A stretch of DNA of 14,416 bases, taken from contig JAFTCU010000309.1 of assembly GCA_017454585.1 (NCBI GenBank), positions 1 to 14,416 on the forward strand. Reading direction: 5' to 3'. Shown here one piece after another: positions 1 to 14,416 of this stretch. The stretch is from Thermoguttaceae bacterium (GTDB lineage: Bacteria; Planctomycetota; Planctomycetia; Pirellulales; Thermoguttaceae). The position numbers and the translations under genes were made by a program. A model generated the notes under the pieces. It was given only the letters and a program-made list of their open reading frames with translations. It was not told the DNA's origin and did no database searches. Each line of letters opens with the position of its first letter. Position 1 is the stretch's first letter.

Positions 1-48
1 CAAGAGCAGCATTTGCTCGCGGTTTCCATTTTTTGTCCTAAATCCCAT
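1..48 (-). CDS. Probable transposase, first 16 codons only (cut by window edge)
   Basis: An ATG at 48 reading leftwards is preceded by AGGAG at 55-59 with a 6-nt spacer, and by a good promoter at 75-102. The visible peptide is MGFRTKNGNREQMLLL. Many IS1182-type DDE transposases begin with a short basic stretch followed by a motif like REQ-x-LLLPPSL, and this start would fit that pattern. The identification rests on recalled family similarity over very few residues, so it is tentative. If correct, an insertion sequence starts between the small Tat-protein gene at 110-313 and this ATG. No terminal inverted repeat or target duplication can be confirmed because the other end lies outside the window. 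The alternative is an unrelated gene with its own promoter. Confidence 0.4.
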   Translation of the reverse strand, partial: MGFRTKNGNREQMLLL

Positions 49-74
49 TGGTAACTCCTGAATTTGTACAGGAT

Positions 75-102
75 ATTGTACCAGATTTTCAGGAAAATAC
101 AA
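75..102 (-). promoter_or_regulatory. Sigma-70-like promoter for the left-edge gene
   Basis: On the minus strand TTGTAT (97-102) and TACAAT (75-80) are separated by 16 nt. The predicted start near 68 leaves a leader of about 20 nt that contains the AGGAG ribosome site. The spacer holds a 14-nt palindrome, ATTTTC-AG-GAAAAT (85-98), which could be an operator. The promoter lies immediately after the stop codon of the upstream small gene, so the left-edge gene has its own transcription signal. Confidence 0.5.
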
Positions 103-109
103 GATGGGA

Positions 110-313
110 TTAGTTGGCGGGGTGGTATGTGCAACAGGCTGAATCTGGCCCCGGCGGCGGTGGAGGGGGACAACTTTGAGGGCCATGGGGGGCCGGTGGA
201 GGCGGTGGAGCCTGAGCGTTCGCTTCACCAACGCTTAAAGCGGTGAAGATACCGGCTCCCAGCGCAAGGCCACTTTTACGAAGGAAAGAGCGGCGAGACT
301 CGTTAACTGACAT
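110..313 (-). CDS. Small Tat-exported Pro/Cys-rich protein (short paralogue)
   Basis: The product is 67 residues and is not a family I recognise by name. It starts MSVNESRRSFLRKSGLALG, with a textbook twin-arginine motif SRRSFLRK (residues 6-13), a hydrophobic stretch, and a probable signal peptidase site after ANA (about residue 33). The predicted mature part is only about 34 residues: five prolines, an APHGPQSC segment, six prolines, and a CC pair, with Cys at 48, 60 and 61. Its first 19 residues are identical to those of the paralogue at 584-910, and C48 and C61 align. It lacks that paralogue's C-terminal glycine-rich tail, so it may be a truncated or decayed copy. The start is supported by AAAGGAAG upstream and by the shared promoter element at 370-400. 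The role is unknown. Proline spacing with Cys/His suggests metal binding, disulphide cross-linking or a surface role, all inferred. Confidence 0.75.
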   Translation of the reverse strand: MSVNESRRSFLRKSGLALGAGIFTALSVGEANAQAPPPPPAPHGPQSCPPPPPPGPDSACCTYHPAN

Positions 314-369
314 TGATTCTTCCTTTCAATATAAAGGGGTGACACCAAGGATGACAAGTCCTTTATCAA

Positions 370-400
370 TGAGACACCTGAACAGACTAAAACTAAACAG
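370..400 (-). promoter_or_regulatory. Shared promoter element, copy 1 (probable ECF sigma site)
   Basis: On the minus strand CTGTTTAG (393-400) and CTGTTCAG (378-385) are direct repeats with a 15-nt period, followed by TCTCA at 370-374. From the end of GTTTAGTT (391-398) to TCTCA is 16 nt, the usual geometry for an ECF -35/-10 pair. The region upstream is AT-rich. The -10-like box ends 56 nt before the start codon at 313. The same element occurs at 966-996 and 1730-1760 with identical spacing. Confidence 0.7.
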
Positions 401-530
401 GAAAATAAATAAAATTTTAAAAAATAGGAAAATTTCCCAGATTGTTTGTTTTTTTCCCCCGTTTGTTCATCTTTTCTTCTGGTGAATTCAGAATCTTGAT
501 ATTTTAACTTATTCAAAACAAAAATTTTAT

Positions 531-574
531 AAAAAAAGAACCATCCCCCATAATTATAAAAAGGTTTGGTTCTT
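531..574 (-). terminator. Intrinsic terminator after the longer Tat-exported protein gene
   Basis: On the minus strand AAGAACCA (567-574) pairs with TGGTTCTT (536-543) across a 23-nt loop and runs into a T tract (531-535). It starts 9 bp after the stop codon of the gene at 584-910 and would isolate that gene from the next one downstream. Confidence 0.7.
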
Positions 575-583
575 GGAAATGAA

Positions 584-910
584 TTAACCACCAATAATGC
601 GCCCAATCAATTCGCCAATTCCACGGCCTAAATCACATTCTGACCCCGGCTCTGGCCTTGGCGGAGGTGGATAACAACGTGGACCCGGCGGCGGTGGGCA
701 ATGGCCGTGCGGCGGTGGTGGCGGCGGGCATTGACCGTGCGGCGGTGGCGGCGGTTGTTGCTGTCTGCAAGGTGTTCCTGGATTCGGCACAGGATGATAT
801 TGTTGAGCTTGGACTTCAGGAGGCTCTGCGCCAAAAGCTGCGGCGACTCCGATTCCCAGAGCAAGACCGCTTTTACGAAGGAAAGAGCGGCGAGATTCGT
901 TAACGGACAT
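584..910 (-). CDS. Small Tat-exported Pro/His/Cys-rich protein (long paralogue)
   Basis: This 108-residue protein has no family name I can give. The N-terminus has the Tat motif SRRSFLRK (residues 6-13), a hydrophobic core and a likely cleavage site after VQA (about residue 35). The mature part contains irregular repeats of the form P(4-6)-HG-x-C or P-G-P-R-C, with Cys at 48, 61, 71, 79 and 92 and HG pairs at 58 and 68. It ends in a glycine-zipper-like amphipathic tail (about residues 94-108, GIGELIGRIIGG) that could insert into or lie on a membrane. GAAAGGAA precedes the ATG, and the shared promoter element sits at 966-996. Tat export implies folding or cofactor loading before transport, which would fit a metal-binding peptide, but that is inference. 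Several antiparallel open frames in this GC-rich stretch are by-products of the proline codons. Confidence 0.8.
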   Translation of the reverse strand: MSVNESRRSFLRKSGLALGIGVAAAFGAEPPEVQAQQYHPVPNPGTPCRQQQPPPPPHGQCPPPPPPHGHCPPPPGPRCYPPPPRPEPGSECDLGRGIGELIGRIIGG

Positions 911-965
911 TTTTTGTTCCTTTCAAAAAATATTTTAATACGAAGACTTTATAGCCTTCTGTAGT

Positions 966-996
966 TAAGACCCCTGAACAGAAAAAAACTAAACAG
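966..996 (-). promoter_or_regulatory. Shared promoter element, copy 2 (probable ECF sigma site)
   Basis: On the minus strand CTGTTTAG (989-996), CTGTTCAG (974-981) and TCTTA (966-970) have exactly the same spacing as the copy at 370-400. The -10-like box ends 55 nt before the ATG at 910. An AT-rich run (about 1000-1040) lies upstream and could act as an UP element. Confidence 0.7.
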
Positions 997-1139
997 AAAA
1001 ATGGATAAATTTCTTAAAAAAAAGAGAATTTTACTGTTTTGTCGTTTTTTTTAATGTTTTTTCCTGTTATTGTCGTATTTTTTAACCCCGGTACTGACGA
1101 AAACAGGAAATCATTCCCTATTCTCCGGTTTGCCGCCAC

Positions 1140-1682
1140 TTACAGATTTTCATTCTCGTCCTGAAAAAGCTCTTTCAGTTTGCGCATGAGTCTGTTTTTG
1201 GCGGCGCTGATGGTTTGTTTGTTCGTGCCCAGGAGCAGGGCGATCTCCTCAATGGAAAAAGAACTCTCACTTTGGTAGGTCAAATAATAAATGTTCCTCT
1301 CCATTTTTGAAAAACAATGGATCCGGCTATTGATTTTTTCAAGCTGCTCAGACTGGATCAGGGTTTCGATCGGATGTTTCCAGTGAGTGTCTTCGCTCTC
1401 GGAAATGTCTTTGAAGACAACCGAATTCCTCCCCTCAACTTTTTGTTTTTTCTTTGAGCGGAGGAAATTGTTGCAGTCATTATAGACTACTTTATAAAGC
1501 CAGGCCCGCGGGTTGACGATCTCCTCCTGCTGAATCTGAAGCCATATTTTATTCATGGCTTGCTGAACGATGTCCTCAGCATTGACGTTTCCCACGAACT
1601 GGTTGGCGAAATTGACTAATTCCGTCCAAAAATCGTTGAATATATACTCAAACTCTTGTTCGAGTCTGTTTTTTTGGTCCAT
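1140..1682 (-). CDS. ECF-type RNA polymerase sigma factor
   Basis: This 180-residue protein has the two-domain plan of group 4 (ECF) sigma factors. Region 2 covers about residues 20-80, with AEDIVQQAMNKIW at 35-47 and a basic segment RSKKKQK after it. Region 4 covers about 115-173, with a helix-turn-helix at 143-170 (SIEEIALLLGTNKQTISAAK). There is no C-terminal extension and no adjacent anti-sigma factor gene, so how its activity is controlled is not visible here. No clear Shine-Dalgarno site precedes the ATG at 1682. Copy 3 of the shared promoter element lies 48 nt upstream of the start, and the two genes downstream on the same strand carry copies 1 and 2. Autoregulation plus control of the two exported peptides is the natural inference. 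It diverges from rpsB. Confidence 0.9.
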   Translation of the reverse strand: MDQKNRLEQEFEYIFNDFWTELVNFANQFVGNVNAEDIVQQAMNKIWLQIQQEEIVNPRAWLYKVVYNDCNNFLRSKKKQKVEGRNSVVFKDISESEDTHWKHPIETLIQSEQLEKINSRIHCFSKMERNIYYLTYQSESSFSIEEIALLLGTNKQTISAAKNRLMRKLKELFQDENENL

Positions 1683-1729
1683 AAAGCCGGATAAATAATC
1701 ATGGTAGCTCTACAAATAATTACCCATAA

Positions 1730-1760
1730 TAAGAGGCTTAAACAGAGAAAAACTAAACAA
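1730..1760 (-). promoter_or_regulatory. Shared promoter element, copy 3, upstream of the sigma gene itself
   Basis: On the minus strand TTGTTTAG (1753-1760), CTGTTTAA (1738-1745) and TCTTA (1730-1734) match copies 1 and 2 without gaps. GTTTAGTT is perfect in all three copies. The -10-like box ends 47 nt before the ATG at 1682. Its place in front of the sigma gene suggests positive autoregulation. Confidence 0.7.
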
Positions 1761-1859
1761 AAATATTGAAAGATTGTTAGATTTTTTTGATAAATTGAAA
1801 TCATGGTGCGATTGTATTATGAGGATTTCAGGAATCTTTGCAGATTTTTTGAGCCCCCC

Positions 1860-2730: not shown

Positions 2731-2753
2731 GTTTCATCAAGCGTGAAGTGAAT

Positions 2754-2844
2754 GAATAACGAATAATGAATAACGAATAATGGAAGAAACGGATCAAAAG
2801 GTAAATCACATTATTCGTTATTCGTTCTTCATTATTCGTTTCTT
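2754..2844. repeat. Inverted heptamer repeats (GAATAAY) between rpsB and tsf
   Basis: The left arm has four tandem heptamers, GAATAAC-GAATAAT twice (2754-2781). The right arm (2810-2837) has the complementary series ATTATTC, GTTATTC, GTTCTTC, ATTATTC. A 15-nt perfect inverted pair lies at 2768-2782 and 2809-2823, with a 26-nt loop. A transcript through here could form a long AU-rich hairpin. The same heptamer family occurs at 5214-5286. Confidence 0.85.
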
Positions 2845-11873: not shown

Positions 11874-12404
11874 TTAATGCGTAAGGAGGGGGGAGCCGTT
11901 GATTTCAAGCAGTTGTTTCACTATTTCCTCTGGGCTGCACAGTTCGGTCGTGATTTCCATCGTGGCGCAGTCGCGGTACATTGGTTCACGAAATTCGAGG
12001 AGGTGGCGAATTTCATCGAGGGCGGGGAGATTGGTCAGACTGGGGCGGCTCGTTTTGGTCGTTTCATCACCCGTCATGCGATGTAGAATCGTTTCCGGAC
12101 TGGCCGTCAGCCATAGTACCGGGCCGGAGTCACGCAGGACTTTCCGCGTATTTTCCCGCATGACCGCGCCACCGCCCGTGGCCAGGATCAGTTCGGGCTT
12201 CATGCACAATTCGGCGATGATCCGCTCTTCAAAGTCACGAAACGCAGGTTCACCGTCCTCGGCAAAAATTTGGGCGATGGTTTTGCCGGCCTGACGCTCA
12301 ATTTCCCGGTCTGAGTCGATCCACGGGCAGTTCAGCGCCTCGGCCAGAAGCTTCGCGATCGTCGTTTTCCCGGTCGCCCGGTAGCCAATCAGGGAAAGGA
12401 TCAT
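11874..12404 (-). CDS. aroK: Shikimate kinase
   Basis: Shikimate kinase makes shikimate 3-phosphate on the route to chorismate. The 176-residue protein has a P-loop (GYRATGKTT, residues 7-15), the shikimate-binding Asp30 and Asp32, Arg56, the GGG motif at 77-79 (ATGGGAV), and a lid arginine in TSRPSL. The length is typical. A GAGGAG site (12413-12418) is 8 nt before the ATG, and the start overlaps the upstream gene's stop as ATGA (12401-12404). It is the middle gene of the probable PrsW-aroK-prepilin peptidase operon, although no metabolic link between the three is evident. Confidence 0.95.
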   Translation of the reverse strand: MILSLIGYRATGKTTIAKLLAEALNCPWIDSDREIERQAGKTIAQIFAEDGEPAFRDFEERIIAELCMKPELILATGGGAVMRENTRKVLRDSGPVLWLTASPETILHRMTGDETTKTSRPSLTNLPALDEIRHLLEFREPMYRDCATMEITTELCSPEEIVKQLLEINGSPLLTH

Positions 12405-13315
12405 TCTTCGTGCTCCTCTCCGGTTTCAAAAGATTCCCACGTTTGAATCACTAAATTAGGGTCTTGCAATGGTTCAGATTCATAAACCTGAATGATTTTA
12501 CTCTTACAGTTGGGGCACCTTTTCAGGTTTGAGGCGTACACGTTTCCACACTGTGCACACACTTTCAAGGCGTTTTCCTCCTGTCCTTCCGGCACGAGCA
12601 GGCTGGCAAGGTGGCGAATTCTTTTGATCGAGCAGACCCACAGGCAGACGTTGATTGCGAGGAACATGAGGTACAGAAGACCAAGCACTCCTTCATTCAT
12701 TCCCTCAATGTCTCTCAAAAACAGAACAGCGTCGTAGGAACCGTGGAAAAGGACTGGGACCCACAGTGCGTAGCTCAAATATTTCTTATTGTTTACACGT
12801 TCAAATTTTGCGAGGGAGAAAAAGTACCCCATCATTACACCGCATAGCGCGTGACAGGGAATGCTGAAAATGGCACGGGTATAGGCGATATTTTGGGCCG
12901 TATCGACACCTGAATTAAGCCCGCCAAAAACATACATAAGATTTTCAATGCAGGCAAACCCCAAAGATACGAAAACGGCGTAAACGATCCCGTCGTAATG
13001 CTCGTCAAACTCTCTGTTGTCCCAGATCCAGTGTTTGAGGATGTATAACTTGGCGAACTCTTCCGGTATGGCGGCGCCAATAAAACCAACGGCGATCGCG
13101 TGGAGAGCAGGAAAGGGAATTAAATCAATGAATTCGGCAATGAAATTTTCAACAATTACGATTGGGTAAGCGGAAACAAACCCCAAAAAGAAGATTTTCG
13201 CCAAGAGCCCAAGTGGTTCCTTGTGGTACCTGTCACGAAGGTAAATATAAGCCAGCAGGATGACCACCGGACCGACGGCCCAATAAAACAGGTATTTGAG
13301 TTCAGAAGGTTCCAT
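12401..13315 (-). CDS. PrsW-family intramembrane protease with C-terminal zinc ribbon
   Basis: The 304-residue protein has several membrane segments and the PrsW signatures: PEEFAK (Glu85-Glu86), FDEHYDGIVYAVFVSLGFACIEN (Glu124), SIPCHALCG (His155) and LFHGSYD (His191, Asp195). These form the likely metal-dependent or acid active site. PrsW was first described as a site-1 protease for anti-sigma factors in Bacillus, but the family is wider and other roles are possible. After the membrane part, residues 253-270 form a CxxC-x10-CxxC zinc ribbon, which many family members lack, followed by an acidic tail. No SD site precedes the ATG at 13315. The gene's end overlaps aroK. Whether it acts on a partner of the ECF sigma factor at 1140-1682 is not supported by the layout. 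Confidence 0.85.
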   Translation of the reverse strand: MEPSELKYLFYWAVGPVVILLAYIYLRDRYHKEPLGLLAKIFFLGFVSAYPIVIVENFIAEFIDLIPFPALHAIAVGFIGAAIPEEFAKLYILKHWIWDNREFDEHYDGIVYAVFVSLGFACIENLMYVFGGLNSGVDTAQNIAYTRAIFSIPCHALCGVMMGYFFSLAKFERVNNKKYLSYALWVPVLFHGSYDAVLFLRDIEGMNEGVLGLLYLMFLAINVCLWVCSIKRIRHLASLLVPEGQEENALKVCAQCGNVYASNLKRCPNCKSKIIQVYESEPLQDPNLVIQTWESFETGEEHEE

Positions 13316-13473: not shown

Positions 13474-14416
13474 TCAGACTTCTTCCGCTGACGGGCAGAC
13501 GAAACCTTCGCGCCATTCGCGGTTCAGGAGAGGCGCGGCGTAGCTGCTGTTGTCGCAGAACTCTTCCTTTTCCGGATCAAAGTGAAGCGTCGGACCGAGG
13601 GAAAGCGGCGTGACGTCCAGATCGACGCCGTTCGCCTGCAGATGCTCGACCGTGCGGTCCAGCGTCGCCACATCGTCGTCCAGGCCACGCACGTCTTCCA
13701 GCGCTTTTCTCAGTTCCGGGACGGAAATCTTGTTCTTCTCGCCGAAGTAGTAGCTGGCGTTTCCAAGGTGGGCCAGCGACGCGGAGAGATGGCCGTCCAG
13801 AATAGGAGCGTTGAGGATGGACGGGTCGCGCTTCTGAACCGCTTCGATGAAATTGTCGAAGTGGAGCTGGTCGCTGCCGCCCTTGAATTCCTTAATGACG
13901 TTTCCTTCTTTGTCATACGCAACGCAGTAACCGTAGTTCACCTGGACGAGTTTTCCTTCGGTGCCGTAGAAGATCACGCCGATCTTGGCACCGTCGAGGT
14001 CCGGGGTTTCCAGACCGCGGGTTTCGAAGACCAACGTCTTGTCGCCGTAGCTGAAAATGGAGACTTCCGTGTTGGCCGTGTCGCCGGCGTCCACGTAGTT
14101 CGGATCCTTGCGTTCAGCCTGGTAGCCGACGCGGCCGCCGTAGGTGATCACGGAGTTCGGATGACGCATGATCCCGAGGCCCCAGCGCGCAATGTCGAAC
14201 TGGTGCGGGCCCTGGTTTCCGGAGTCGCCGTTTCCGTAGAGTCGCTGCCAGTGCCAGTCGTAGTGGAAATTAGGGCGCGTGAGTTTCGGGTCGGTGTAGA
14301 TCGCCGGGCAGCTCCAGAGGTTGAAATCGACCGAGGCCGGAATTTTGTCGGTGTAGTCGCCCAGAGAGCCGATCGACTTGCGGCGTTTGTAGCACAGACC
14401 TCGGGCGAAATTGACC
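13474..14416 (-). CDS. Gfo/Idh/MocA-family oxidoreductase, C-terminal part (N-terminus beyond window)
   Basis: The frame is open to the right edge. It can be read upstream of the internal ATG at 14169 from position 14415, so the visible part is about 313 residues, the C-terminal two-thirds of the enzyme. Key features are SVDFNLWSCPA, PNFHYDWHWQRLYGNGDSGNQ and GPHQFDIARWGLG, which line up with NYNLWLGPA, HYDWHFMWNTGNGETGN and GAHLLDDCR of the protein at 9013-10482. The Rossmann domain, any Tat signal and the EKP motif lie off the edge. It is probably a separate paralogue, more distant than a recent duplicate. The stop at 13474-13476 is followed by the GAGTTGA repeat. Confidence 0.85.
   Translation of the reverse strand, partial: VNFARGLCYKRRKSIGSLGDYTDKIPASVDFNLWSCPAIYTDPKLTRPNFHYDWHWQRLYGNGDSGNQGPHQFDIARWGLGIMRHPNSVITYGGRVGYQAERKDPNYVDAGDTANTEVSIFSYGDKTLVFETRGLETPDLDGAKIGVIFYGTEGKLVQVNYGYCVAYDKEGNVIKEFKGGSDQLHFDNFIEAVQKRDPSILNAPILDGHLSASLAHLGNASYYFGEKNKISVPELRKALEDVRGLDDDVATLDRTVEHLQANGVDLDVTPLSLGPTLHFDPEKEEFCDNSSYAAPLLNREWREGFVCPSAEEV

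What the first reader, a model, noticed from the sequence alone, without database searches (positions are those of the whole stretch)
370..1760. One sigma factor and two small exported peptides share a three-copy promoter element
Seen directly: a 29-bp element occurs three times on the minus strand, at 370-398, 966-994 and 1730-1758. GTTTAGTT is identical in all, the internal spacing is exact, and TCTYA lies 16 nt further on. Each copy ends 47-56 nt before a start codon: two paralogous Tat-exported peptides and the ECF sigma gene itself. Known: ECF sigma factors often drive their own promoter and have -35/-10 boxes with this spacing; RpoE uses a TCTGA-like -10. Inferred: these genes form an autoregulated regulon, perhaps for envelope or metal stress. 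I know of no described system with this combination.
Basis: partly seen in the sequence, partly recalled or inferred. Interest (0 to 1): 0.85.

Follow-up and report, generated by a model that had tools for sequence, protein, structure and literature searches.

The report
Sigma factor sharing promoters with peptides
In a gut planctomycete, a small gene for a transcription-switch protein and two neighbouring genes for tiny, probably exported peptides carry the same promoter-like DNA element, which suggests that the switch turns on itself and the peptides; the arrangement is of a known general kind, but very few relatives of these genes were found.

Summary
A 29-bp element lies at 370-398, 966-994 and 1730-1758 on the minus strand, 56, 55 and 47 nt before the ATGs of two Tat-leader peptide genes and an ECF-type sigma gene. 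All three copies agree at 22 of 29 positions. With up to 3 mismatches nothing else in the window matches, and nothing in 200 shuffles. Between the sigma and peptide copies, similarity stops sharply below the element.

Most likely it is a self-activating ECF promoter shared by three genes, with no anti-sigma gene recognised beside them (0.7; nothing was measured).

tat1 and tat2 are duplicates, so their copies are not independent. The supposed spacer is conserved too (TCTGTTYA) and forms a 15-bp direct repeat with the first half, so a regulator site is a real rival. The -35 lacks the classic AAC. Metal or envelope stress is only a guess.

The window is a gut Thermoguttaceae. The module is not upstream of rpsB in three relatives, and no orthologue was recognised in 119 family genomes (no positive control). 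A word-based search of 5.8 billion proteins found two close sigma relatives. No genome is held for the window, so the regulon could not be enumerated.

The parts
1730..1758 (-). promoter-like element copy 3, upstream of the sigma gene
966..994 (-). promoter-like element copy 2, upstream of tat2
370..398 (-). promoter-like element copy 1, upstream of tat1
1140..1682 (-). ECF-type sigma factor, 180 aa
   Evidence: TIGR02937 above cut-off; Pfam Sigma70_r2 above cut-off, both region-4 models below theirs; SigW E 8.2e-7; ECF-containing entries head the Foldseek list from a moderate-confidence model
584..910 (-). tat2: 108-aa peptide with twin-arginine leader, Pro/His/Cys-rich
   Evidence: TIGR01409 13.1 bits, below its cut-off of 16.7; leader identical to tat1 for 19 residues
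110..313 (-). tat1: 67-aa peptide with twin-arginine leader, Pro-rich with Cys and His
   Evidence: TIGR01409 18.8 bits, cut-off 16.7
1738..1760 (-). direct repeat TTGTTTAG / CTGTTTAA, period 15, overlapping copy 3
   Evidence: 2 mismatches
974..996 (-). direct repeat CTGTTTAG / CTGTTCAG, period 15, overlapping copy 2
   Evidence: 1 mismatch
378..400 (-). direct repeat CTGTTTAG / CTGTTCAG, period 15, overlapping copy 1
   Evidence: 1 mismatch
537..573 (-). hairpin followed by a U run after tat2, possible terminator separating tat2 from tat1
   Evidence: weak: 47 of 200 shuffles of the 101-nt stretch fold at least as well (z -0.68), and the terminator scan did not list it
1..1853 (.). module region without counterpart upstream of rpsB in three relatives; GC 0.426 against 0.539 in the rest of the window
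   Evidence: the left limit lies outside the window

Best explanation
The three elements are promoters read by RNA polymerase carrying the ECF sigma factor encoded at 1140-1682: -35 region GTTTAGTT(TT), 16-nt gap after GTTTAGTT, -10 region TCTYA, with transcription starting a few nt downstream. The sigma activates its own gene and, from separate promoters, two genes for short peptides with identical twin-arginine leaders and different Pro/His/Cys-rich remainders. This makes a small positive-feedback module that exports the peptides when triggered. Shown: the elements, their positions, the sigma family, the leaders. Inferred: that this sigma reads these sites, the start points, export. Unknown: the trigger; no anti-sigma gene was recognised beside it, so control may be transcriptional or by a distant regulator. 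The peptides may bind metal or act in the envelope through their His/Cys/Pro residues, but that is a guess.
For: Three copies with exact spacing, each 47-56 nt before a start codon, in gene orientation, no others in the window at up to 3 mismatches. Sharp loss of similarity below the element between the sigma and peptide genes. The third gene is itself an ECF-type sigma; positive autoregulation was listed as an ECF hallmark (PMC8103513, its section on classification read whole). ECFs without an anti-sigma are on record (PMC8999054, passages). The spacing resembles that of ECF promoters (recalled). The element is rare in relatives: 6 matches at up to 3 mismatches in 119 family genomes, against 13 for the reversed-pattern control.
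Against: The element holds no AAC and no CGT on the coding strand, unlike the classic boxes. Its middle (TCTGTTYA), which should be a free spacer, is as conserved as the boxes and repeats the first half. The tat1 and tat2 copies share descent, and the tat1-sigma match alone is matched by 3 of 1000 shuffles. No relative of the promoter was found to test conservation: exact pattern 0 in genome contigs and 0 in viral contigs, no excess in 119 family genomes. No expression data.
Confidence: 0.7

Rival explanations
1. The element is an operator: a direct repeat YTGTTTAG-N7-CTGTTYAR bound by an unseen activator or repressor that co-regulates the sigma gene and the peptide genes; TCTYA is part of a weak -10. 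The sigma is then a target and not the reader of the sites.
For: The direct repeat is present in all three copies with 1, 1 and 2 mismatches and constant period 15; the spacer is conserved; no AAC or CGT in the element.
Against: An 8-mer repeat at a distance of 9-21 occurs at 28 of 737 (3.8%, up to 1 mismatch) and 136 of 737 (18%, up to 2 mismatches) positions of the module's intergenic DNA, the elements themselves included. No other regulator was recognised among the 13 window proteins scanned. TCTYA at fixed ECF-like spacing is left unexplained.
Confidence: 0.18
2. Both: an ECF promoter overlapped by a regulator site, so that sigma and a second factor are both needed.
For: Conserved boxes and a conserved, repeated spacer together.
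Against: No second factor seen; the spacer could be alike because two of the copies are duplicates.
Confidence: 0.08
3. The similarity is leftover from duplication or a spreading AT-rich repeat, with no regulatory meaning.
For: tat1 and tat2 regions are paralogous over 84 and 98 nt; the region is AT-richer than the rest.
Against: Sigma and tat genes share the element but not the 30 nt below it (4 of 30); three-way identity 22 of 29 against at most 16 in 150 shuffles; every copy sits at a similar place before a start codon.
Confidence: 0.04

Closest known systems
Autoregulated ECF sigma regulons (general; PMC8103513, classification section read whole plus passages)
   Same: sigma2-sigma4 protein; promoter-like element upstream of its own gene and of neighbouring genes for exported products
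   Different: no anti-sigma recognised in the neighbourhood; no AAC or CGT in the element; conserved, repeated spacer
gigPABT and rpoQ-rsqA of Cupriavidus metallidurans (PMC10304878, passages read)
   Same: ECF gene beside a gene for a small, putatively periplasmic Cys-containing peptide (GigP)
   Different: there the sigma has a predicted membrane-bound anti-sigma and the peptide gene lies in the gigPABT operon; that paper reports no direct evidence that RpoQ drives gig
Bufferin clusters (MNIO-modified exported peptides; PMC12452194, passages including parts of the abstract)
   Same: small Cys-containing exported peptides; sigma-factor domains are listed there among proteins relevant to MNIO clusters
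   Different: bufferin precursors have Sec signals and an MNIO enzyme gene; here Tat leaders, and no MNIO among the 13 window proteins scanned
E. coli sigmaE (RpoE) promoters (recalled, no call)
   Same: TCTGA-like -10 and similar spacing
   Different: GGAACTT -35 not present

Membership tests
ECF sigma factor (group 4 sigma-70) | sigma2 and sigma4 domains only | tested here: met
   TIGR02937 69.6 bits over residues 10-171; Pfam region 2 above cut-off, region-4 models 14.9 and 13.7 bits, below 24.1 and 25.7; SigW match over 11-172; ECF-containing entries head the Foldseek list, but TM-scores (by query) are 0.30-0.38 for the 17 at E up to 0.001 and model pLDDT is 73.8
ECF sigma factor (group 4 sigma-70) | binds core RNA polymerase and directs transcription | not testable with these tools
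   needs biochemistry
Classic ECF hallmark set (2009 classification, as told in PMC8103513) | -35 with AAC and -10 with CGT | tested here: not met
   neither triplet in any of the three copies on the coding strand; hallmark, where it is said to be no longer defining
Classic ECF hallmark set (2009 classification, as told in PMC8103513) | co-transcribed anti-sigma | tested here: not met
   next same-strand genes are tat2 and tat1, in which Pfam and NCBIfam recognised no anti-sigma; the DNA left of the window was not seen, and anti-sigmas can escape such models
Classic ECF hallmark set (2009 classification, as told in PMC8103513) | positive autoregulation | tested here: inconclusive
   own upstream region carries the shared element; no expression test
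Tat-exported proteins (tat1) | twin-arginine signal at the N-terminus | tested here: met
   TIGR01409 18.8 bits, cut-off 16.7
Tat-exported proteins (tat2) | twin-arginine signal at the N-terminus | tested here: inconclusive
   13.1 bits, below 16.7, but first 19 residues identical to tat1
Bufferin / MNIO-modified peptides | MNIO (DUF692) enzyme encoded nearby | tested here: not met
   none among 13 window proteins scanned with Pfam; the genes at 11874-12404 and 13474-14415 and the DNA left of the window were not scanned

The most novel reading that the evidence does not exclude
A self-contained accessory regulatory cassette of gut planctomycetes: an ECF sigma without anti-sigma that reads a non-AAC promoter with an internal 15-bp direct repeat and drives itself plus a fast-diverging set of Tat-exported Cys/His/Pro peptides, the peptides being the whole output (for example metal-binding, envelope or signalling peptides).
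Probability: 0.25. Interest if true: 0.6.

Novelty: new variant of a known kind. Interest (0 to 1): 0.42.

Why it matters
If the sigma does read these sites, the three promoters give the recognition sequence of an ECF type with hardly any known relatives, in a poorly studied gut lineage, and tie it to a new group of tiny Tat-leader peptides. An ECF positive-feedback loop with no visible anti-sigma raises the question of what keeps it off.

Tried and rejected
As a substitute I searched 119 family genomes around the nearest relative: 6 matches at up to 3 mismatches against 13 for the reversed control. This shows that the element is rare, not that a regulon exists there.

Orthologues. Exact element: 0 in genome contigs and 0 in viral contigs. 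Sigma profile: 0 of 6 genomes at 1e-10; 25 of 119 at 1e-5, best 1e-11. tblastn of the window sigma hits 18 of the 20 fetched sigma loci, at 24-28% identity, so I take these as other ECFs. 0 of 396 order genomes at 1e-12. None of these genome searches had a positive control, and completeness of the genomes was not told. 0 relatives in viral contigs. tat1: 12 of 119 genomes with 14 places at E up to 0.01, best 4.6e-4; I gave 12 of the 14 places to a script, which printed frames for 10; they look like Tat leaders of large proteins or chance frames. The element with up to 5 mismatches occurs 0 times in the 20 distant ECF loci; at 6 mismatches 5 times, against 2 for the reversed control. A narrow search for small RR.FL peptides in the fetched loci from L027 on listed only the window's own two.

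Sigma-70 promoter for the three genes: a sigma-70-like site lies between element and ATG of tat1 only (357-328), so it does not explain the shared element. A second -35/-10 pair starting from the second repeat half was looked for by eye only and not seen. RNA family in 1-2900: none at gathering score. Metal-stress function by analogy to bufferins or gig: no partner genes seen, kept only as a guess. Transposase at the left end: two weak DNA hits in 119 genomes; the script found no frame with a matching start in them.

Full report
What is there. The three elements are as described: GTTTAGTTTTAGTCTGTTCAGGTGTCTCA, GTTTAGTTTTTTTCTGTTCAGGGGTCTTA and GTTTAGTTTTTCTCTGTTTAAGCCTCTTA on the minus strand at 370-398, 966-994 and 1730-1758, ending 56, 55 and 47 nt before the ATGs of tat1 (110-313), tat2 (584-910) and the sigma gene (1140-1682). 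22 of 29 columns are identical in all three. The full pattern with up to 3 mismatches finds these three places only, and none in 200 shuffles. The two boxes alone are not specific at 3 mismatches (10 found, 4.8 expected), so the strength of the observation rests on the conserved middle as well as on the boxes.

Independence of the copies. tat1 and tat2 are duplicates: 19 identical leader residues with five silent changes in those codons, 98 nt at 82% around the start and 84 nt at 77% from the element upstream. Between them the element is 25 of 29, the 30 nt above 22 of 30 and the 30 nt below 14 of 30. Their shared element is therefore partly shared descent. The sigma gene is the independent witness: against tat1 and tat2 its element is 22 and 24 of 29, while the 30 nt below are 4 of 30 and the 30 nt above 14 of 30 in both comparisons. 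The best 29-mer match is 25 for tat2-sigma (0 of 1000 shuffles reach it) but only 22 for tat1-sigma (3 of 1000 reach it). Three-way, 22 identical columns against a maximum of 16 in 150 shuffles; the window reported there starts 11 nt above the element and ties with it, so the block extends into T/A-rich DNA above the -35.

The proteins. The 180-aa protein is an ECF-type sigma factor: NCBIfam TIGR02937 69.6 bits (cut-off 42.9) and Pfam region 2 above cut-off; the region-4 models are below their Pfam cut-offs. The one solved-structure sequence match is SigW (E 8.2e-7). A 3-sequence AlphaFold model (pLDDT 73.8, pTM 0.46) finds ECF-containing entries first in the PDB, with low TM-scores. A word-based search of 5.8 billion proteins gave two close relatives, 89% and 79% identical; a profile search added three sigma-like proteins at 27-29%. 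tat2 found only itself. The mature parts are rich in Pro with His and Cys; nothing says what they do. No anti-sigma was recognised: the next same-strand genes are the two peptides, and the DNA left of position 1 is not available.

Where it is. The Tsf part used as query is 96, 86 and 85% identical to three goat and water-deer gut Thermoguttaceae MAGs. The rpsB side of the window aligns with them, but alignment stops at window 1854, 1856 and 1874, and other genes lie upstream of rpsB there. GC is 0.426 left of 1854 and 0.539 to the right. In 119 genomes of the family no sigma or peptide orthologue was recognised and the element shows no excess; these searches had no positive control. So the module looks accessory and lineage-restricted; whether it was gained or lost was not tested.

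How it probably works. Positive autoregulation was listed as an ECF hallmark, and target promoters of autoregulated ECFs are predicted from over-represented motifs (PMC8103513, classification section read whole). The element fits in geometry (recalled) and in position. I therefore favour a self-activating ECF with two separately transcribed peptide genes. A hairpin with a U run after tat2 (537-573) may separate the units, but 47 of 200 shuffles fold as well and the terminator scan did not list it. Two things do not fit neatly. The classic AAC and CGT are missing; that review says they no longer define ECFs. And the spacer is conserved: TCTGTTYA makes a direct repeat with the -35 region (CTGTTTAG/CTGTTCAG twice, TTGTTTAG/CTGTTTAA; period 15). 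Such repeats occur at 28 of 737 (up to 1 mismatch) or 136 of 737 (up to 2) intergenic positions of the module, so it is a lead and not proof, but it makes a regulator site a serious rival.

Compared with known systems. A small Cys-containing, putatively periplasmic peptide beside an ECF gene is known from gig/rpoQ of Cupriavidus (PMC10304878, passages), and small exported Cys peptides from bufferin clusters (PMC12452194, passages). Those have an anti-sigma or an MNIO enzyme, and bufferins use Sec signals. Neither partner was found in the 13 window proteins scanned. ECFs without anti-sigma are on record (PMC8999054, passages). Seven paper searches ran (0, 1, 16, 4, 11, 11 and 0 papers, of which at most 10 were listed per search); no listed title or abstract start described this combination. 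They cover open-licence PMC papers only.

Verdict. A real, well-observed feature, most likely a small autoregulated ECF module with unusual promoter details and lineage-specific peptides. Interesting as a testable unit in a poorly studied gut lineage, but of a known general kind and without functional evidence.

Noticed in passing
window 1-48, minus strand: Start of an open frame (MGFRTKNGNREQMLLL) running off the window, with an upstream stretch resembling the rpsB promoter (75-89 against 1873-1887). It reminded me of transposase starts (recalled, unconfirmed); relatives gave no matching gene.
   Followed up: partly
proteins P0001-P0003 (sigma at window 1140-1682): Mosaic: over residues 1-111 the window sigma differs from P0002 at 3 and from P0003 at 36 positions, but over 112-180 from P0002 at 16 and from P0003 at 1. 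This looks like recombination that swaps the -35-reading region.
   Followed up: partly
window 12401-13315, minus strand: PrsW-family intramembrane protease, a family known (recalled) for cutting the anti-sigma RsiW of SigW; no link to this module shown.
   Followed up: no
window 687-746: Two head-to-tail 30-nt copies inside tat2 (87% alike), suggesting that the Pro/His/Cys part changes by repeat expansion.
   Followed up: no
window 2748-2844: Stretch between rpsB and tsf that matches another place in L001 (9871-9956, 76.5%), a dispersed intergenic repeat.
   Followed up: no
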